Shown here in pieces: positions 22,712 through 40,293 of a DNA stretch of 44,793 nucleotides. The position numbers were made by a program, and so were the translations under genes. Below the pieces are notes generated by a model that saw only the letters and a list, made by a program, of their open reading frames with translations, had not been told where the DNA came from and ran no database searches. Numbering within the stretch: position 1 is the stretch's first letter; each line of letters begins with the position of its first letter. The stretch is from Thermococcus celericrescens (GTDB lineage: Archaea > Methanobacteriota_B > Thermococci > Thermococcales > Thermococcaceae): the NCBI RefSeq assembly GCF_001484195.1, contig NZ_LLYW01000007.1:1-44793 (forward strand), read 5' to 3'.

Positions 22712-23470
22712 TCAACCCCTCCCCAGCTTTTCGAGAATTTCGAAGGCCGCTTTCCTCCCGCTCAGGAACATGCCGCCGAATATCGGGCCCATTCTCGGGG
22801 CACCGCTTATTGCGTTTGCGGCCATTCCGGTGACGTAGAGGCCCGGGAAGATTTCCCGCGTGTGTTTAACGGTCAGCTCCTCCCCCTTCTCGGCCCACAT
22901 CGGCCCCTCGCCGGGAACCTCAATGAGGCCCCTCTTAACGAGGTGCTGACTTATCTGCGCCCCGTGGCCCGTCGAATCGATTACAAACTTCGCCTCGACG
23001 GTGAGCGGGTCCACGTGGAGGCCCGTCATGAGAATCGGCGTCCAGTTGATTACAACCCCGGCCACGCGGTCGTCCTTCAGGACCAAATCCTCAACCTCAA
23101 TCATGTTGAAGAAGCGCACGCCGGCTTTAACGGCCTGGCTCGCTATTGTGGTTGCGGTCTCTATCGCGTCTGCGACGTAGAGACCGTTTTTGAAGGGCTT
23201 GTACGTTATTCCAAACTCGTTGAGGATTTCTTTAGCTTCTTCCTGAACGACTATCCTGTTGAAGCCCATCGCACCGCCCCAAATTCCGCCGCCGATTGAG
23301 AGCTTCTTCTCGAATATCGCAACCTTTGCCCCGTTCTTGGCGAGGTAGTAGCCGGCGACCATTCCGGAGGGGCCCGCGCCGACTATCGCCACGTCAAGGC
23401 TCAAACTCTCAAGAAGCTCCTCCGTGTAGGCCTCTATTATCGCCCTGCTTATCTCCATCTCCCTCAGCAT
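22712..23470 (-). CDS. thi4: Thi4-type thiazole synthase, catalytic (His in place of Cys)
   Basis: The product is 252 residues and makes the adenylated thiazole moiety from NAD, glycine and sulfur. It has an N-terminal FAD/NAD-type dinucleotide fold (VAIVGAGPSGMVAGYYLA), EKKLSIGGGIWGG, and a C-terminal VTGMAANAISGAPRMGPIFG. Yeast Thi4 gives up the sulfur of a Cys in a GHDGPFGAFCAKR segment. Here the same place reads GHGAQISQHLVKR, so a His replaces it. This points to the archaeal type that uses free sulfide and turns over repeatedly. ATG 23470 has GGGTG 6 nt ahead; ATG 23476 has none in range. Confidence 0.95.
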   Translation of the reverse strand: MLREMEISRAIIEAYTEELLESLSLDVAIVGAGPSGMVAGYYLAKNGAKVAIFEKKLSIGGGIWGGAMGFNRIVVQEEAKEILNEFGITYKPFKNGLYVADAIETATTIASQAVKAGVRFFNMIEVEDLVLKDDRVAGVVINWTPILMTGLHVDPLTVEAKFVIDSTGHGAQISQHLVKRGLIEVPGEGPMWAEKGEELTVKHTREIFPGLYVTGMAANAISGAPRMGPIFGGMFLSGRKAAFEILEKLGRG

Positions 23471-23480
23471 CTCCATCACC

Positions 23481-23543
23481 CAAAACCTTTTAAGCCGCAC
23501 TCAAAACTAAGTTTTGAAATTTAAAAACTTTGTTATAAACGGG
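23481..23543. repeat. Left copy of the duplicated thi4/thiC control region
   Basis: From 23487 a 57-bp block matches 25273-25329 with five mismatches; the last half includes 28 identical bases. It contains a CCTTTTAAG TATA-like element, the perfect inverted repeat CAAAACT-A-AGTTTTG (23502-23516) and, on the minus strand, GTTTTTAAATTTC, the likely TATA box of thi4 (transcript start near 23496). Both copies have the same orientation. Confidence 0.85.
23502..23516. promoter_or_regulatory. Candidate thiamine-repressor operator at thi4
   Basis: CAAAACT-A-AGTTTTG is a perfect 7-bp inverted repeat sitting between the thi4 TATA box and its transcript start. The same repeat with one central change stands ahead of thiC. 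Thermococcales are thought to control thiamine genes with ThiR, so this is a candidate site; the assignment is inference. Confidence 0.5.
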
Positions 23544-23616
23544 TTTTAAAAATCAGCTTTAGGCCATAAACCTACAGAAGGAGCTAAGAGGATCATAAAA
23601 TCAAAAAGAGCGGAAA

Positions 23617-25206
23617 TCAATGATCTGTTGGGTTTTCAGGATTCTCTGTGGGACAGTACCTCTTGTGTGGATCACAGGGAGGATTGTATCCTGAACTCCC
23701 AGGTATGAAGATATCTCCGAACATTCCCGTGAGGGGATATTTCCTGCCCTTGTACTCAAGCCTAACCTTGCTGGAGTATATCGTCGCTTTCACCGGAGTG
23801 TTCACGTATTCGCTGTTATCTTTAATGGATATATCCACAGTAACCAGAGATAATCCCTCTGATTCCTTAGTTAGTCCGAGACCAATAGCAAGAGTTATTG
23901 GCGAAATTTCTGAGTCCCCAGCATTAATAACACCGAGAACCGGAGACGAAGCCGAGAATATAGGCAGAGTATCTAATTCCTTCCAAATGGAGAATGTTCT
24001 GAGGTTAAGATGACCATCATTTGATTCAGTAACGGCCTCTTTCCAGTACCTGTGTACGAACCACATAGTTCTGCTCATTGGCCCACCGCTATTTCTTGGC
24101 CATCCTGGTTCAACGAATTTCCTTAAACGCATGTCCTTTTCATCAGGTTTTCCAAGAACCACATAAGCGTAAGTGTCTAGGGGCTTCTTGTTCCAGACTT
24201 TCCCGTTGACATAGTCTACTCTGTAGAGCCTGTACTTAGAAAATACAGCACTTCCCCTAAGCCCCACACCGATAACAGAAGGCGATACAAGCTCGTGTCC
24301 CCAGATTGTAACTTCAGACTTTGGAATTCTGAGTGAGCTTCTATCTATTGTGTATGAATAACCAAGGATCTTTCCCTCCACTGAACCGCCGACACTGCCT
24401 CTCTCAATAGCCCCAACTGCAGAAAAAGCCAGCTCCGCATTTCTGGTAACGACCATGCTGTAATCCAAAGTTAGTGTAATGTCGTTTATTCTATCGATAT
24501 CGCCAGTCACTTGGAAAGCCGCCACTGGAATGATGCTGGCCCTTCCCAATGTCTTCTCGTGGAACCACTCAAAGCAGTACCATGTTCGATCACCACCCTC
24601 ATAGAACGGGGGTGAACATGAAGATTCTAGGAGAGATGATTCTCTTGAGGATGCCCCTGTAATCCCCCTCGGGGCCATTTTCCCGGGAGCACGGAGAATT
24701 TTCTCAACTTCTCTCCTGCTATAAAGCCTGCCCGATGCCGAATTATCGAGTTGGACTTTAACTCTCATTCCAGACACGATTCTACCAATGTTGAGAGGAA
24801 CAGTTTTCATGAAGTAGTTTAGATTGCCGTCTCTATCAACCGTAGTCCCCAGCAGAAGCAGTGAAGGTTTAACACTCTCAGGTTTGATGCCTTCTGCTCT
24901 CAGGTAACTGTTCCATTCGCGCATGGCGTAAAGTACCCTGTGGAAGTCTATTGAGATTTTGCCTTTGCCCGAATAAGTGCCCAGGTACTTTAACGAGCCA
25001 TTCGGCATTAGGGCTGAGACGGAGACCGATGCATAATCGTCCGTTGGGAGTTTGACCTCGAAAGAGGGCTCGAAGATAAAGCTCCTGTAGTAGTCAACCC
25101 TCACCCCGTAGTATTCGGTGGACTCCGCGGGAACCTGGGAGGCGGCAAAGACCGACGCTGACACCATGGCAAGTATCAGAAGAAGAACTACTGTAACTCT
25201 TTTCAT
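23617..25206 (-). CDS. Secreted protein of unknown function, inserted between thi4 and thiC
   Basis: The product is 529 residues with an N-terminal signal peptide (MKRVTVVLLLILAMVSASVFA). ATG 25206 follows GAGGTGA. The mature part is beta-rich with no membrane segment and no motif I know. Cysteines are clustered (SSCSPPFYEGGDRTWYCFEW near the middle, PPCDPHKRYCPTE at the end), suggesting disulfides outside the cell. Codon use looks more AT-rich than the flanking thi genes. The gene lies exactly between two copies of the thi control region. The right copy points a thi4-type promoter at it (predicted start near 25275), so it may be thiamine-responsive. Confidence 0.75.
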   Translation of the reverse strand: MKRVTVVLLLILAMVSASVFAASQVPAESTEYYGVRVDYYRSFIFEPSFEVKLPTDDYASVSVSALMPNGSLKYLGTYSGKGKISIDFHRVLYAMREWNSYLRAEGIKPESVKPSLLLLGTTVDRDGNLNYFMKTVPLNIGRIVSGMRVKVQLDNSASGRLYSRREVEKILRAPGKMAPRGITGASSRESSLLESSCSPPFYEGGDRTWYCFEWFHEKTLGRASIIPVAAFQVTGDIDRINDITLTLDYSMVVTRNAELAFSAVGAIERGSVGGSVEGKILGYSYTIDRSSLRIPKSEVTIWGHELVSPSVIGVGLRGSAVFSKYRLYRVDYVNGKVWNKKPLDTYAYVVLGKPDEKDMRLRKFVEPGWPRNSGGPMSRTMWFVHRYWKEAVTESNDGHLNLRTFSIWKELDTLPIFSASSPVLGVINAGDSEISPITLAIGLGLTKESEGLSLVTVDISIKDNSEYVNTPVKATIYSSKVRLEYKGRKYPLTGMFGDIFIPGSSGYNPPCDPHKRYCPTENPENPTDH

Positions 25207-25265
25207 AAAGTCACCTCAATAGTTGATACCATATACGACTTCAAAAAGTTTTCAGTTGAGCGCTC

Positions 25266-25329
25266 CAAAAACCTTTTAAGGCTCACTAAAAACTGAGTTT
25301 TGAAATTTAAAAACTTTGTTATACACGGT
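25266..25329. repeat. Right copy of the duplicated thi4/thiC control region
   Basis: This copy is the thiC promoter. CCTTTTAAGG (25272-25281) is the likely thiC TATA box with a start near 25302. The inverted repeat AAAACT-G-AGTTTT (25289-25301) lies between TATA and start. Read leftward, ATTTAAAAAC is a second TATA box facing the inserted gene. The two copies are about 1.8 kb apart in direct orientation. Confidence 0.85.
25289..25301. promoter_or_regulatory. Candidate thiamine-repressor operator at thiC
   Basis: AAAACT-G-AGTTTT is an inverted repeat matching the one at thi4. Its place just downstream of the TATA box would let a repressor block transcription start. Confidence 0.5.
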
Positions 25330-25336
25330 GGTGGCA

Positions 25337-26626
25337 ATGACCCAGCTGGAGGAAGCTAGGCGCGGGGTAATTACGGAGGAAATGAAGTTCATAGCGGAGC
25401 GCGAGGGTATAAGCCCTGAAAAGCTGAGGAGAAGCGTCGCCAAAGGCCACACCGTCATATTCCGCAACGTGAGGCACGACTGGGTTAAGCCCGTTGCGGT
25501 TGGTGAAGTCGTCCGCGTCAAGGTCAACGCCAACATAGGCACCTCGCGCGACATAGTAGACGTCGAGGCCGAGATAGAGAAGGCCAAGATCGCGGTCAAA
25601 TATGGCGCCGATACCATAATGGATCTCTCAACTGGCGGCGACCTCGATGAAATAAGAAAGCGCATAATGAAGGCTGTAGACGTTCCCATCGGCACCGTTC
25701 CCATCTACCAGGCCGCCGAGGAGATGCTGGCCAAAGGAAATGCCATCATCGAGATGACCGAGGACGACATGTGGAGGGCTGTGGAGAATCACTTCAGGGA
25801 CGGCGTTGACTACACGACGATACACGTTGGAGTTACGAAAGAGGTCGTCGAGAAGATGAAGAGAACCAAGAGGATTGTCGGCATGGTCTCCCGCGGCGGA
25901 ACTTTTCTCGCGGCGTGGATACTCCACTGGGGCGAGGAAAACCCCCTCTACAAGAACTACGACTACCTCCTTGAGCTCGCCAGGGAGTATGACGTCGTCC
26001 TAAGCCTTGGCGACGGGTTGAGGCCTGGCGGACTGCCCGATGCTGGCGACGAACTGCAGATAGCCGAGCTTTACACCCTCGGAAGGCTCGTTAGGAGAGC
26101 CAGAGAGGCAGAAGTTCAGACCATGGTTGAAGGACCCGGCCACGTTCCGATAGACCAGATAGCGGCGCAGGTGAAGCTGGCCAAGATCGCCACGGATAAC
26201 GCTCCTTTCTATGTGTTGGGTCCGATAGTTACCGACGTCTTCCCAGGCTACGACCACATCACGGCGGCCATAGGCGGAGCAATAGCCGCTTTAAACGGGG
26301 CTGACTTCCTCTGCTACGTCACCCCAGCGGAGCACCTCGGCCTCCCGACCCCCGAGCACGTGAGGGAGGGGGTTATAGCTGCCAGGATAGCCGCTCACGC
26401 AGTCAATCTAACGCGCTTCGAGGCCGATTTTAAGAAGGATTACCTCATGAGCCTTGCGAGGGGAAGGCTGAACTGGGCGAAGCAGTTCGAACTCAGCGAG
26501 GACAAGGAGATGTTCGTCGAGATAAGGAAGGAGAGACCGACAAAGACCGAGGCATGCTCCATGTGCGGCGATTTATGCGCGATAAAGCTCATCAACGACA
26601 TGCTGAGGAAGGGTGAGGCCGAGTGA
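25337..26626 (+). CDS. thiC: Phosphomethylpyrimidine synthase ThiC
   Basis: The product is 429 residues. This radical-SAM enzyme rearranges aminoimidazole ribotide into HMP phosphate. The C-terminal cluster motif is CSMCGDLC (CxxCxxxxC with a preceding Ala). Core motifs include ADTIMDLSTGGD, VPIGTVPIYQA, TIHVGVTKE, GDGLRPGGLPDAGDE and MVEGPGHVPIDQI. ATG 25337 has GGTGGTGG ahead. Its stop overlaps the purC start by 4 bp, so thiamine and purine genes are on one transcript. Confidence 0.97.
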   Translation: MTQLEEARRGVITEEMKFIAEREGISPEKLRRSVAKGHTVIFRNVRHDWVKPVAVGEVVRVKVNANIGTSRDIVDVEAEIEKAKIAVKYGADTIMDLSTGGDLDEIRKRIMKAVDVPIGTVPIYQAAEEMLAKGNAIIEMTEDDMWRAVENHFRDGVDYTTIHVGVTKEVVEKMKRTKRIVGMVSRGGTFLAAWILHWGEENPLYKNYDYLLELAREYDVVLSLGDGLRPGGLPDAGDELQIAELYTLGRLVRRAREAEVQTMVEGPGHVPIDQIAAQVKLAKIATDNAPFYVLGPIVTDVFPGYDHITAAIGGAIAALNGADFLCYVTPAEHLGLPTPEHVREGVIAARIAAHAVNLTRFEADFKKDYLMSLARGRLNWAKQFELSEDKEMFVEIRKERPTKTEACSMCGDLCAIKLINDMLRKGEAE

Positions 26627-27282
26627 GGCTCATCTACCGCGGTAAGACGAAGGACGTTTACGAGGATGGCCCGTATCTAGTCTTTTACTTCAAGGACTCC
26701 CTGCTGGGCGAAGACGGCAGAGAGGACACGGGTGGCAACGAGGTGATAGGCGAGAGGCCCGGCAAGGGGAGTGCGGTTCTCAGGCAGACGGAGTTCTTCT
26801 TCAGCCTGCTGGAAAGGAACGGGATAAGGACCCACTTCGTCGAGCGGATTGACGAGAGAAGGGCGCGCTTTCTGAAGGCAGAGAGGATTCCGCTGGAGAC
26901 TATATACCGCTTCAAGGCTTACGGAAGCTTTCTCAGGAGATACAACGGATGGGTGGAGTCCCTCCAAGAGCTGGGAATAGTCGAGTTCACCCTCAAGGAC
27001 GACTCGCTCGGCGACCCCCTCATAACCGAAGAAGCAATATTACGGCTCGGTATAGCGAGCGAAGGGGAGCTGGAGGAAATGAAGGAGGTAACGAAAAGGG
27101 TCGCCGAAATCCTGGCGGAGTTCTTCTCCGCAAAGGGGCTTGAGCTAATAGACTTCAAGCTGGAGTTCGGCAGGCTGAATGGAGAGCTTCTGGTGATAGA
27201 CGAGCTCAGCGGCGACACGATGCGCGTTATGAAGAGCGGAAGGCTTTTGAGCCAGGAAGAGCTCCTGGAGGTGGTAGAATGA
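26623..27282 (+). CDS. purC: SAICAR synthetase PurC
   Basis: The product is 219 residues starting at a GTG that overlaps the thiC stop. It joins CAIR and aspartate with ATP. The motifs are YRGKTKDVYE, RRYNGWVESL, LIDFKLEFGRLNGELLVIDE and LSGDTMRV. It follows ThiC, whose substrate AIR is the immediate precursor of CAIR, so the two enzymes draw on the same pool. The stop overlaps the purP start by 4 bp. Confidence 0.95.
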   Translation: MRLIYRGKTKDVYEDGPYLVFYFKDSLLGEDGREDTGGNEVIGERPGKGSAVLRQTEFFFSLLERNGIRTHFVERIDERRARFLKAERIPLETIYRFKAYGSFLRRYNGWVESLQELGIVEFTLKDDSLGDPLITEEAILRLGIASEGELEEMKEVTKRVAEILAEFFSAKGLELIDFKLEFGRLNGELLVIDELSGDTMRVMKSGRLLSQEELLEVVE

Positions 27283-28211
27283 TAATCTCCACCATAGCTT
27301 CCCACTCCTCCCTTCAGATACTCATGGGGGCAAAGAGAGAGGGCTTCAGAACGAGGCTCTACGTCAAACCGAATAGAAAGGCCTTCTACTCCTCCATCCC
27401 GCCCGTCGATGAAATCGTCGTAACGGAAAACATGAGGGAAGTACTCGGTGATGACGGCATCGTCGTACCCCACGGCTCTTTCGTGGCCTACCTTGGTATA
27501 GAGGCCATCGAGAAAGCAAATACTAAGTTCTTCGGCAACAAGCGTTTCCTCAAGTGGGAAACCAGCTTTGAACTCCAGGATAGGGTCCTTAAAAAGGCCG
27601 GCATTCCGACGGTTGAAGTCATCGAGCCCGAAGAGGCTAAGCCAGACGAGCTTTACTTTGTCCGCCTTGAGGGACCGAGGGGCGGAAGCGGACACTTCTT
27701 GGCTTACGGTTATGAACTGGAGGAGAAGATCAAAGGCCTGAGCGAACCCTACAGGATTGAACGCTTCACAGACGGCGTTTACCTCTACGTCCACTTCTTC
27801 TATTCGCCAATTTTAAACCGTTTGGAGCTCTTTGGCGTTGATGAGCGCCTGGTCATCGCGGACGCAAACAAGAGGCGGCCCTTCAGGACCCTCCCATACA
27901 CCATAGCGGGAAACAAGGCCGTAGCGCTGAGGGAGTCGCTCATTCCAGTGCTCTACGATTACGGATTGGCTTTCGTCAAGGCCATGGAGGAGCTTGAACC
28001 TCCCGGCATCATAGGTCCCTTCGCTCTCCACTTCGCCTACGATGGTGAATTTCGCTGCATAGGCTTCGCCTCGCGCATAGACGGCGGCAGCAATGCCAAA
28101 CACTGGTACTCGGCCCTCTACTGGGAGAGGCCGATGCTCATGGGCGAGAGGATAGCGCGCGAGATTAAGCTCGCCCTAGAGGAGGACAGGCTTGAGGAGG
28201 TGGTAACTTGA
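27279..28211 (+). CDS. purP: FAICAR synthetase PurP (formate-dependent)
   Basis: The product is 310 residues, an archaeal ATP-grasp enzyme that formylates AICAR with free formate in place of the folate-dependent PurH step. Markers are SHSSLQILMGAKREGFRTRL, HGSFVAYLGIEA, RLEGPRGGSGHFLAYG, ADANKRRPFRTLPYTIAGN and FASRIDGGSNAKHWYSALYW. Coupled by 4-bp overlaps to purC and purO. Confidence 0.95.
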   Translation: MIISTIASHSSLQILMGAKREGFRTRLYVKPNRKAFYSSIPPVDEIVVTENMREVLGDDGIVVPHGSFVAYLGIEAIEKANTKFFGNKRFLKWETSFELQDRVLKKAGIPTVEVIEPEEAKPDELYFVRLEGPRGGSGHFLAYGYELEEKIKGLSEPYRIERFTDGVYLYVHFFYSPILNRLELFGVDERLVIADANKRRPFRTLPYTIAGNKAVALRESLIPVLYDYGLAFVKAMEELEPPGIIGPFALHFAYDGEFRCIGFASRIDGGSNAKHWYSALYWERPMLMGERIAREIKLALEEDRLEEVVT

Positions 28212-28798
28212 GGTACGTCGGGAGAATGCTTGGAGTGGGCCTAACCAACGACAGGCCCTTCGCCTTCTACCGCCTGAACTCCCGCTCATTCCCTAACAGG
28301 AGGGCGGTTATTCGGGGAAACGAAATTTACATAGCCAACCAGACCGAGACTGACAACCCCTACGTGAGCTATCCCGTTGTGAAGCTGCTCGAAAACTATG
28401 CGGTCGTGAGCAACGGGCTGCAGACGGTCTTTATAGCCCAGGCTCTCGAAGAGGAAAGCCCGAGAAAAGCGTTGATCCATGTCCTCGACGCCTTCGACTA
28501 CGAGCGTGATGACTACAGCACACCGAGGATAGCTGCCATAGTGGAGTGCGGGAAAGCTAGGGGCTGGCTCGGCTTCGTTGGCAGAGAAGAGCTCTGGGTT
28601 AAAGCCATTAAGCTGGAAGAAGGGAAGGCCTTCTTTACCGCAACGTACAACGTTGATGGCATTGAAGAGCTGGAGCTGAGCTTTTCGAATGCCGAAGAAC
28701 TGGCTGAGAAAGTCTTAAGGCTGGAGTTCGCCCATCCGGTGCTGGCCATAGGGGTGGTGGAAAAAGAAAACGGTTGGGGGCTGGCCATCAGCCCTTGA
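28208..28798 (+). CDS. purO: Archaeal IMP cyclohydrolase PurO
   Basis: The product is 196 residues starting at TTG overlapping the purP stop. It closes FAICAR to IMP. The family start [22 protein letters not shown] and the segments [27 protein letters not shown] and [15 protein letters not shown] are recognisable. With PurC and PurP it forms the end of the IMP pathway; PurA at 36163 takes IMP to AMP. The 3' end overlaps the convergent ribH by 11 bp. Confidence 0.93.
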
Positions 28799-29252
28799 GC
28801 TTTTTCATCAGGTTGGCCATCTCAAGAGCTGCCATCGCGTACTCGAAGCCCTTGTTGCTCTTTATCCCCGCCCTGTTCAGGCCCTGAAGCTCATCTTCAA
28901 CTGTTATCACGCCAAAAATAACGGGGACGCCCGTCTGGAGCGAAGCGTTTGCAACCCCCTTGGCAACTTCGTTTGCAACGAGATCGAAGTGCTTGGTTTC
29001 TCCTCTAACCACCGCACCAAGGGCCAAAACAGCGTCGTACTTCCCGCTCTCGGCGAGCTTTTTGGCAGCGAGCGGTATTTCGAAGGAGCCCGGTACTTTA
29101 ACCACGTCAACCTTCTCAACGCCGTGCCTCTCGAAGCAGTCCAAAGCACCGCTCAGGAGCTCGTCCGTGAGGAGGTCGTTGAACCTCGCCACAACCACCC
29201 CTATCCTCAGGTTCTCACCCATGAATTCACCCTCAACGACGCAAACCTCCAT
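28788..29252 (-). CDS. ribH: Lumazine synthase RibH
   Basis: The product is 154 residues. It condenses dihydroxybutanone phosphate with the pyrimidine from the RibD step to give lumazine, usually as a 60-mer or pentamer. The motifs are [48 protein letters not shown] and [17 protein letters not shown] 29252 follows GGGGGTGAGGG. A 59-bp gap to ribBA contains a weak TATA-like TTATTTAATTC. Confidence 0.95.
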
Positions 29253-38867: not shown

Positions 38868-40293
38868 TTTCTTTTCTTCAAGCCTCGCCCTTTAGGGCGG
38901 GGTATGGTGAGTGATAAATTAGCCTTAACGAGGAAAGCAATCTTTTTTAAAGCCTAAAAACCATGACCATATTTTGAAATGAAGCGTTCGGTGACAGTAA
39001 AACTCCAGCCAAGCAAAGAACAAGAGAAAATCCTCTTTGAGTTAGCTCACGCTTCAGCAATAATCTGGAACAAGCTCAATTATCAACGTTTGAAACAGTT
39101 CAGAGAATTCGGCAAAATAGACTTCTCAACAACCGAAAAGGAAGCTTACCACGAGTTCAAAGACTGGATTGGGGGCTCGACCGTTCAACAGTTAGCCAGA
39201 AAGAACGCCGAAAGTTGGCGGAGCTTTTTCACACTCAACAGAAAGAAAAAGAAGGGAGAACTGCCGGAATGGTTCAAGCCAAAACCACCAAAGTTTATCA
39301 GAGAGAAGAACGGCGGAAAACTCTTCATAATCCCACTCAGAAACGACCAACACAAAATCGAAGGGAATAAACTAATTCTTCGAAGACTCGGAAAATACGG
39401 GATGCTGGAAATTCAATTTAAAGGCAGAATTCACCTGAAGGGAAAACATGGACGTTTAGAAATAACTTACGACCCCGTGAAGCGGAAATGGTATGCTCAC
39501 GTCAGCATAAGCGTCGAGAAGAAACTTCAGGGTGGAGAATGGGTTGAAGTTCCAAGAACTCCAAAAGGAAGCCTGTCAGCAGGCATTGACTTGGGCGTGA
39601 ACAATTTAATGGCAGTTTACGTGGAGAACGGCCAAAGCTTCCTCGTGAATGGGAGACCGCTAAAAAGCATTGACTTCTACTGGCAGAAGAGAATAGCGGA
39701 ATACCAATCAAAACTCAATAAATCCGGAGCAAAGACAAGTAGGAAGCTCAAGAAAATGCACGAGAAGGCCAAACTTCAGGCGAAACACTACATTAACACT
39801 GCCGTGAGACAGACGGTTAGAAGGCTTTACGAGTTGGGATTTTCCAGAATCGTCGTCGGCTATCCAAAAGGAATAGCCAGAAACTCTGAGAAAGGCAGGA
39901 AACAGAATTTTATCCTCTCACATGTCTGGCGGTTTAATTACGTTATCAAACGCTTGACGGAAGTTGCGGAAGAGTATGGTATTCAAGTTAAGGTTGTTGA
40001 TGAAGCTTTCACTTCTCAAACCTGCCCCCTCTGTGGCCAATGCCATGCTAACGCTCGTTTTGTTCGGGGTTTATTCAAGTGCCACAGAGAGGGCGTTGTC
40101 ATGAATGCTGACCTTGTTGGAGCGTTTAATATCTTGAAGAAGGCGGTAAAAACCATAACCCCGAGCCTTCCAGCCTTGGCTGGAGGTAGGGGTAATTGGC
40201 CGAAGGCCCGGCCAGAGGGGTTCGAAGAACCCATTTTAACGGGTTCTCCCATGAGAACCCCTCAAACCTCCCCATCAATGGTGAGGGGTTAAC
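38868..40293 (+). mobile_element. IS1341/IS605-type element carrying tnpB only
   Basis: The left end has the hairpin CGCCC-TTTA-GGGCG (38886-38899), shared with the decayed copy at 393-412, and follows TTGAC (38863-38867), a plausible target/TAM motif. The tnpB promoter (TTTTTTAAAGCCTAAAAA) is also shared. The right end is the structured 3' end of tnpB. There is no tnpA transposase, so movement needs help in trans. A 7-bp repeat CTCGTTG occurs just outside both ends (38859-38865 and 40293-40299). Exact ends are inferred. Confidence 0.7.
38979..40292 (+). CDS. tnpB: TnpB, RNA-guided nuclease of an IS605-group element
   Basis: The product is 437 residues. Its N-terminal half resembles the remnant at the left edge. 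RuvC residues are visible: D204 in GIDLGVNNL, E342 in VVDEAFTSQ and D378 in MNADLVGAFNIL. The zinc finger has CPLCG as the first pair, but the second pair reads KCHREG where I would expect C-x-x-C, so the fourth Cys is Glu here. Catalytic residues are intact; the finger change may weaken it. The last 60 residues (PSLPALAGGRGNWPKARPEG onward) come from the DNA that also forms the putative guide RNA. Confidence 0.93.
   Translation: MKRSVTVKLQPSKEQEKILFELAHASAIIWNKLNYQRLKQFREFGKIDFSTTEKEAYHEFKDWIGGSTVQQLARKNAESWRSFFTLNRKKKKGELPEWFKPKPPKFIREKNGGKLFIIPLRNDQHKIEGNKLILRRLGKYGMLEIQFKGRIHLKGKHGRLEITYDPVKRKWYAHVSISVEKKLQGGEWVEVPRTPKGSLSAGIDLGVNNLMAVYVENGQSFLVNGRPLKSIDFYWQKRIAEYQSKLNKSGAKTSRKLKKMHEKAKLQAKHYINTAVRQTVRRLYELGFSRIVVGYPKGIARNSEKGRKQNFILSHVWRFNYVIKRLTEVAEEYGIQVKVVDEAFTSQTCPLCGQCHANARFVRGLFKCHREGVVMNADLVGAFNILKKAVKTITPSLPALAGGRGNWPKARPEGFEEPILTGSPMRTPQTSPSMVRG

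What the first reader, a model, noticed from the sequence alone, without database searches (positions are those of the whole stretch)
23481..25329. Cargo gene inserted between thi4 and thiC, flanked by a duplicated bidirectional thiamine promoter
About 57 bp holding two opposed TATA boxes and a palindrome is present on both sides of the 529-residue secreted-protein gene, in direct orientation, with five mismatches. The left copy serves thi4 and the right copy serves thiC. The likely ancestor was one shared divergent promoter. Duplication during insertion left both host operons with intact control and would also place the cargo under a thi4-type promoter. 57 bp is far longer than an ordinary target duplication, so a different insertion route is implied.
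Basis: partly seen in the sequence, partly recalled or inferred. Interest (0 to 1): 0.75.

Follow-up and report, generated by a model that had tools for sequence, protein, structure and literature searches.

The report
Gene cassette inside a duplicated promoter
Between two vitamin B1 genes of a Thermococcus archaeon sits an extra secreted-protein gene bracketed by two copies of the promoter those genes normally share, and comparison with relatives suggests that this gene is gained, lost and swapped between species as a block, with several exchange points falling in the promoter copies.

Summary
A 64-73 bp block is repeated in direct orientation on both sides of a 529-residue secreted-protein gene between thi4 and thiC. 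In 94 Thermococcaceae genomes, 48 have thi4 and thiC side by side: 37 are empty with one copy, 10 carry this gene family between two copies, and one (G043) carries an unrelated 184-aa gene between two copies. There are no exceptions. The promoter is interdigitated: the thiC-ward TATA lies beside thi4 and the thi4-ward TATA beside thiC, so an insert spares both operons only if the whole promoter is doubled. The cargo is scattered over the trees and in some genome pairs is 8-14 points more alike than its flanking genes. The window's locus is a three-part mosaic: thi4 from its own clade, cargo like G069, thiC plus 3.5 kb like G038, the last starting inside the right promoter copy. How the first duplication arose is unresolved; integrase-free homologous recombination best explains later traffic. 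Cargo function and fold are unknown.

The parts
22712..23476 (-). thi4
   Evidence: Pfam Thi4 E=3.6e-80; start chosen at ATG 23474-23476
23479..23551 (.). Left promoter copy (thi4 side); 64 nt aligned to the right copy, 73 nt to G069's right copy
23486..23494 (+). thiC-ward TATA (CCTTTTAAG) of the left copy, now pointing into the cargo's 3' end
   Evidence: function inferred
23501..23517 (.). Palindrome TCAAAACTAAGTTTTGA, candidate operator (ThiR suggested)
   Evidence: sequence; operator role inferred
23533..23537 (-). thi4-ward TATA (TATAA on - strand) of the left copy
   Evidence: function inferred
23617..25206 (-). Cargo gene, 529 aa secreted protein of unknown family
25241..25252 (-). Cargo's own BRE/TATA (AAAACTTTTTGA), -46 to -35 from its ATG
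   Evidence: 21 of 21 family members
25265..25328 (.). Right promoter copy (thiC side)
25272..25280 (+). thiC-ward TATA of the right copy
   Evidence: offset from left copy; function inferred
25319..25323 (-). thi4-type TATA of the right copy, could read leftward into the cargo as a second promoter
   Evidence: function inferred
25337..26626 (+). thiC
   Evidence: Pfam ThiC_Rad_SAM E=7.6e-186
25289..28806 (.). Imported tract, 96.5-97% identical to G038, starting at the palindrome inside the right promoter copy; G000-G038 rpoB is only 86.3%

Best explanation
In Thermococcus, thi4 and thiC are transcribed away from each other from one interdigitated promoter of about 55-80 bp: each gene's TATA lies next to the other gene's start, with a palindrome over the predicted start sites between them. 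The halves cannot be pulled apart, so a gene can sit between thi4 and thiC harmlessly only if the whole promoter is present on both sides. A secreted-protein gene with its own core promoter came to lie there, once in ancestry as judged by shared junctions, between two full copies. Since then gene plus copies behaves as a cassette: homologous recombination through the promoter copies or the flanking genes, probably after natural transformation, adds it, removes it cleanly to leave one copy, or swaps its content between species. Shown: two-copy/one-copy state in every genome examined, mosaic junctions in or next to the copies in the window's genome, own promoter sequence of the cargo, a different gene between two copies in G043. 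Inferred: which TATA serves which gene, the recombination route, transformation, and the direction of single gain or loss events. Not resolved: how the first duplication was made.
For: (1) 48 genomes with thi4 next to thiC: 37 empty with one copy (38 loci, gap 70-88 bp), 10 with the cargo and 1 with another gene, all 11 with two copies. (2) Geometry: both TATA-like elements present in 33 of 33 empty loci that the script could read (5 further loci missed its pattern; by eye they too hold AT-rich elements at both places); in 7 genomes where thi4 has no thiC within 3 kb the thi4-proximal TATA is missing in 7 of 7, while the distal TTATA stays (6 of 7 by pattern, the seventh reads GTTATAG). (3) Filled state is scattered: 9-10 changes on rpoB, thi4 and thiC trees, near the shuffled mean of about 10. 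(4) Cargo outruns its flanks (nt identity cargo / thi4 / thiC / rpoB): G070-G071 99.1/89.2/89.6/94.4; G022-G064 95.6/85.3/85.5/82.6; G000-G069 89.8/75.7/81.3/82.6. (5) Junctions: G000-G069 goes from 74.3% in thi4 to 95% in the left copy, 97% in the spacer and 99.6% in the cargo's last third; G000-G038 identity of 97% starts at 25289, inside the right copy, and runs to about 28806, though rpoB is 86.3% and thi4 75.4%. (6) G000's right copy is 98.3% identical over 59 nt to the LEFT copy of its near relative G022, as expected if copies recombine across positions. (7) Empty G021 carries the unusual left-copy variants of filled G064, joined to a normal thiC side. (8) One origin: all 11 right copies have AAAAA where most left copies and most empty sites have AAAA, and the 10 cargos share the same 5' leader. 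(9) Own promoter of the cargo, 21 of 21 against 5.5% of shuffles.
Against: Within-genome copies are only slightly more alike than random left-right pairs (87.1% against 85.2%; 196 of 10,000 permutations as high), so strong homogenisation between copies is not seen. Not every junction is at a copy: G000-G069 identity also drops inside the cargo (99.6, 93.2, 76.9% by thirds), G022-G064 switches at the spacer and leader edges of the cargo rather than in the copies, and in G070-G071 the raised identity begins in the thi4 5' end. Trees cannot tell gain from loss. G021/G064 can be read in either direction. G060 is a MAG with two strain-like versions on separate contigs. The single-origin argument for G043's insert rests on short similarity (about 13 bp of leader and a weak left spacer). 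No promoter was mapped.
Confidence: 0.72

Rival explanations
1. One reading: the duplication serves to put the cargo under thiamine control from the right copy's thi4-type promoter.
For: The right copy keeps a thi4-ward TATA-like element in all filled genomes, and no gene lies between it and the cargo. Read-through from about 100 nt upstream is possible.
Against: Cargo relatives at unrelated loci have the same BRE/TATA at -43 to -49 without any thi promoter. The thi4-ward TATA would be kept anyway if it overlaps what thiC needs. Two T5 runs lie between the right copy and the gene.
Confidence: 0.2
2. The promoter first duplicated in tandem by slippage or unequal crossover, and the gene later entered between the two copies.
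For: Gives the same final layout and the shared junctions.
Against: No empty two-copy intermediate among 38 empty loci; it may be extinct.
Confidence: 0.25
3. A circular DNA carrying the cargo and a copy of the thi promoter integrated by a single (Campbell-type) crossover in the promoter.
For: Explains a full-promoter direct repeat in one step and the reverse excision to one copy (layout).
Against: No such circle or relative found in viral contigs, phage or plasmid records. The outer edges of the copies would have to coincide with the circle's homology.
Confidence: 0.35
4. A transposon or integrase-borne element with an unusually long target-site duplication.
For: Direct repeats flank the insert, and the site holds two unrelated genes in different genomes.
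Against: No recombinase gene in the insert, no inverted repeats at its ends, 18 cargo relatives elsewhere have no comparable flanking repeats, and the repeat is the host promoter.
Confidence: 0.04
5. Vertical inheritance from a filled ancestor with many losses only, no transfer.
For: Shared junctions and one cargo clade; losses by repeat recombination are easy.
Against: Cargo is far more alike than flanks and rpoB between G000 and G069, G022 and G064.
Confidence: 0.05

Closest known systems
VARTIG modules of Thermococcales (Makarova et al. 2021, PMC8416519; abstract, sections 10-11 and passages read)
   Same: Hypervariable secreted/surface proteins, patchy in Thermococcales, diversified in place by recombination between species; mechanism of exchange said to be unclear there.
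   Different: VARTIG are islands of 1-25 genes led by large Ig proteins with a C-terminal D[ND]NxxxG[GD] motif; here a single gene without that motif (0 of 24 family members, some truncated), inside a duplicated metabolic promoter.
Campbell-type single-crossover integration (general knowledge)
   Same: Insert flanked by direct repeats of the homologous target; reversal restores one copy.
   Different: No circular donor seen; the repeat here is a promoter whose duplication is needed for host function.
Homologous replacement of variable loci between conserved flanks, as in surface-antigen loci of bacteria (general knowledge)
   Same: Different cargo between conserved flanking genes, exchanged by homologous recombination.
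   Different: Homology includes a short promoter duplicated on both sides, so presence/absence can toggle cleanly.
ThiR thiamine regulon of archaea (cited in PMC10746257, passages read; original paper PMC5287396 not held)
   Same: G000 encodes an HTH-ThiN protein, and the palindrome is a plausible operator.
   Different: Operator identity not tested here; the published motif was not seen by me.

Membership tests
VARTIG (arCOG07710 group) | C-terminal D[ND]NxxxG[GD] motif | tested here: not met
   0 of 24 cargo-family members in their last 60 residues, some rows truncated at the end
VARTIG (arCOG07710 group) | Several Ig-like domains in the C-terminal half | tested here: inconclusive
   Model pLDDT 77.6; only residues 34-141 give weak matches to MG/Ig-like domains, Z at most 4.7
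VARTIG (arCOG07710 group) | First gene of a variable island with further variable genes | tested here: not met
   Single gene between thi4 and thiC in all 10 genomes; the paper allows islands of one gene, so this alone is weak
Transposon or integrated element | Own transposase or integrase within the insert | tested here: not met
   The insert holds one gene without any family match
Campbell-type integration | Direct repeats of the target at both ends and one copy at empty sites | tested here: met
   11 of 11 filled genomes with two copies, 37 of 37 empty genomes with one
Campbell-type integration | Circular donor carrying insert and one repeat copy | tested here: inconclusive
   No relative in viral contigs, phages or plasmids; chromosomal paralogs carry no thi promoter
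ThiR regulon | Regulator gene present | tested here: met
   HTH-ThiN ORF at L090 1495-2220(-), disrupted near its C-terminus in this draft
ThiR regulon | ThiR binds the palindrome | not testable with these tools
   Needs a DNA-binding assay

The most novel reading that the evidence does not exclude
An interdigitated divergent promoter acts as an integrase-free docking site: because its two halves cannot be separated, any gene that enters and survives is bracketed by two full copies, and these copies then serve as homology arms through which Thermococcus species swap unrelated secreted-protein genes (the 529-aa family in ten genomes, an orphan 184-aa gene in G043) at one locus. This would be a testable route for gene turnover in naturally competent archaea, with the cargo a diversifying surface or secreted factor of microbial conflict.
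Probability: 0.4. Interest if true: 0.75.

Novelty: new variant of a known kind. Interest (0 to 1): 0.56.

Why it matters
It gives a clean natural case in which promoter geometry decides how a gene can be inserted, and in which empty, filled and differently filled alleles exist side by side in one genus that can be transformed in the laboratory. It also offers a concrete exchange mechanism for patchy, fast-changing secreted proteins of Thermococcales, a point that earlier work on VARTIG left open.

Tried and rejected
Looked for other copies of the block in G000 (none real) and for the composite motif in 94 genomes (56 genomes; 55 are the genomes with a close thi4, and the exception, G073, was not examined). 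Looked for flanking repeats around 18 cargo relatives at other loci (no repeat like this one; short or partial repeats at three of them, L063, L057, L061), so the family does not duplicate its target elsewhere. Suspected tandem cassettes in G060: contig C71 begins with a left-type copy and C65's partial cargo is 98.2% identical to C71's, so I read it as strain mixture in a MAG. Family searches of the cargo in Pfam, NCBIfam, PHROGs and PADLOC: nothing; for G043's gene only E 0.03-0.05 hits, discarded. Solved structures by sequence: none. Foldseek PDB and viral: no row with probability above 0.25 in the lists seen. VIA: Z at most 4.7, which the tool itself calls common; complement/MG, transglutaminase and parasporin rows are not taken as kinship. 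G043's protein found in no other genome of 94 and not matched by the cargo profile (0.3 bits). The genome-contig scan with Thi4 returned 80 loci, of which only the first ten are Thermococcales; it served to show that the genus is Thermococcus (L153 matches G064's contig in length and coordinates). Literature: searches listed no description of this insertion; that is a statement about these searches in one open-access library only. Transcript-start papers PMC4247193 and PMC5316973 were searched for passages; neither text mentions thiamine; PMC5316973 gave the TATA spacing that I used.

Rows dropped before counts: G051's second locus is counted as a locus, not a genome; G043 is counted apart from the cargo family; G056 is left out of the rpoB tree (split gene); the thi4 tree has 44 rows and the thiC tree 48 because some loci were cut short; G070's cargo, with an in-frame stop, is left out of alignment A1; one search read 33 of 38 empty loci; one search used 21 family members of the 29 genomes with a match, leaving out the more distant or truncated ones.

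Full report
What is there. The window carries thi4 (22712-23476, minus strand), a 529-aa ORF (23617-25206, minus) and thiC (25337-26626, plus). A 64-nt block at 23479-23542 recurs at 25265-25328 with 6 mismatches, in direct orientation, and these are its only good matches in the genome.

Empty and filled sites. Of 94 Thermococcaceae genomes, 55 carry a close thi4 (76% or more; 56 loci). In 48 of these thiC starts next to it: 37 genomes (38 loci) have a gap of 70-88 bp with a single copy, 10 genomes hold the 529-aa gene or a relative of it (66-88% identical) between two copies, and G043 holds an unrelated 184-aa ORF between two copies. In 7 genomes thi4 stands without thiC within the 3 kb read.

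Why the whole promoter is doubled. In the empty sites a TATA-like CTTTTAAG or CTTATAAG lies beside thi4 pointing to thiC, and a TATA-like element lies beside thiC pointing to thi4, with the palindrome AAAACTNAGTTTT between them. Both are present in all 33 loci that the script could read. Where thi4 has no thiC neighbour, the thi4-proximal element is missing in 7 of 7 while the distal TTATA stays. With TATA centred about 27 nt before the start (PMC5316973, passages), both starts fall on or beside the palindrome. I infer that the two promoters interlock, so a gene placed between thi4 and thiC must be bracketed by two whole copies or it would cost the host one operon. That selection filter explains the length of the repeat without needing a recombinase with a long footprint.

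The cargo has its own promoter. Upstream of the start codon in 21 of 21 family members examined, 10 at the thi locus and 11 elsewhere, an A-rich BRE and a TATA-like stretch sit at -43 to -49 (in two members an additional match lies further upstream), against 5.5% in shuffles. The implied start lies about 12 nt before the ATG, just ahead of a GAGGTGA ribosome site. The right copy could still add transcripts from about 100 nt upstream; nothing here shows that it does.

A cassette that travels. The filled state is scattered over rpoB, thi4 and thiC trees, needing 9-10 changes, close to what shuffled labels give. Cargo identity exceeds that of the flanks and of rpoB in several pairs, clearest for G070-G071, G022-G064 and G000-G069. 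In the window's own genome three histories meet: rpoB and thi4 belong with G022 and its relatives, the cargo's last third is 99.6% identical to G069, and from 25289, at the start of the palindrome in the right copy, to about 28806 the sequence is 96.5-97% identical to G038, whose rpoB is only 86.3% identical. The right copy of G000 is also 98.3% identical over 59 nt to the left copy of G022. Empty G021 bears left-copy variants of filled G064 joined to a normal thiC side, which fits loss by recombination between copies but can be read the other way. Results that fit less well: identity also breaks inside the cargo, the G022-G064 junctions lie at spacer and leader, and copies within a genome are only marginally more alike than between genomes.

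One origin, changing content. All 11 right copies share AAAAA at their outer edge where most left copies and most single copies have AAAA, and the ten cargos share one leader. I therefore favour one founding insertion followed by transfer, loss and replacement; G043 would be a replacement of content, with weaker evidence. Natural competence of T. kodakarensis is stated in the abstracts of PMC5988781 and PMC7137780 (seen in the listing), and makes homologous recombination after DNA uptake the simplest route. How the founding duplication formed is open: single-crossover integration of a circle, or tandem duplication followed by insertion.

The cargo protein. It has no match in Pfam, NCBIfam, PHROGs, PADLOC or, by sequence, the PDB, none in viral, phage or plasmid collections, and its model (pLDDT 77.6, pTM 0.81) has no significant fold match. 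Relatives occur in 29 of 94 genomes of the family, with paralogs at other loci. Blocks of 53-56% next to 96% identity between alleles suggest a diversifying exposed protein. The nearest published parallel that I found is VARTIG (PMC8416519), whose C-terminal motif is absent here.

Verdict. Observation confirmed; interpretation partly supported. The insertion with a duplicated shared promoter is real and well supported. Thiamine control of the cargo is not established and is made less necessary by the cargo's own promoter. In the 400 kb of G070 sampled no second such bracketed gene was seen, so generality beyond this locus is untested rather than shown.

Noticed in passing
25289-28806: thiC, the SAICAR-synthetase-like gene and the next two genes are 96.5-97% identical to G038, a genome with rpoB only 86.3% identical: a 3.5-kb imported tract.
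   Followed up: partly
L090 1495-2220 (G000 contig C20): An HTH-ThiN (ThiR-like) gene appears interrupted near its C-terminus: the ThiN match is split between two frames. Could be a draft error.
   Followed up: no
L036 (G070), cargo: The cargo gene of G070 has an in-frame TAG and is 99.1% identical to the intact gene of G071, suggesting recent decay or a sequencing error.
   Followed up: no
L015 763-1317 (G043): 184-aa ORF with a hydrophobic N-terminus, found in no other of 94 genomes, sitting between two promoter copies like the main cargo.
   Followed up: yes
G000 C4:78720-79457: A thi4-like stretch at 33% identity with seven stops in frame: possibly a decayed second thi4-type gene or a chance overlap of domains.
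   Followed up: no
38979-40292: ORF of 437 aa that looks by eye like a TnpB/OrfB-type protein of IS605-like elements; recalled, not searched.
   Followed up: no
Cargo family C-termini (alignment A1): A CDPxTGxCP-like motif near the C-terminus in 19 of 24 family members, with some rows truncated.
   Followed up: no
G051 contigs C83 and C109: Two thi4-thiC loci in one MAG, each empty with one copy; probably strain mixture.
   Followed up: no
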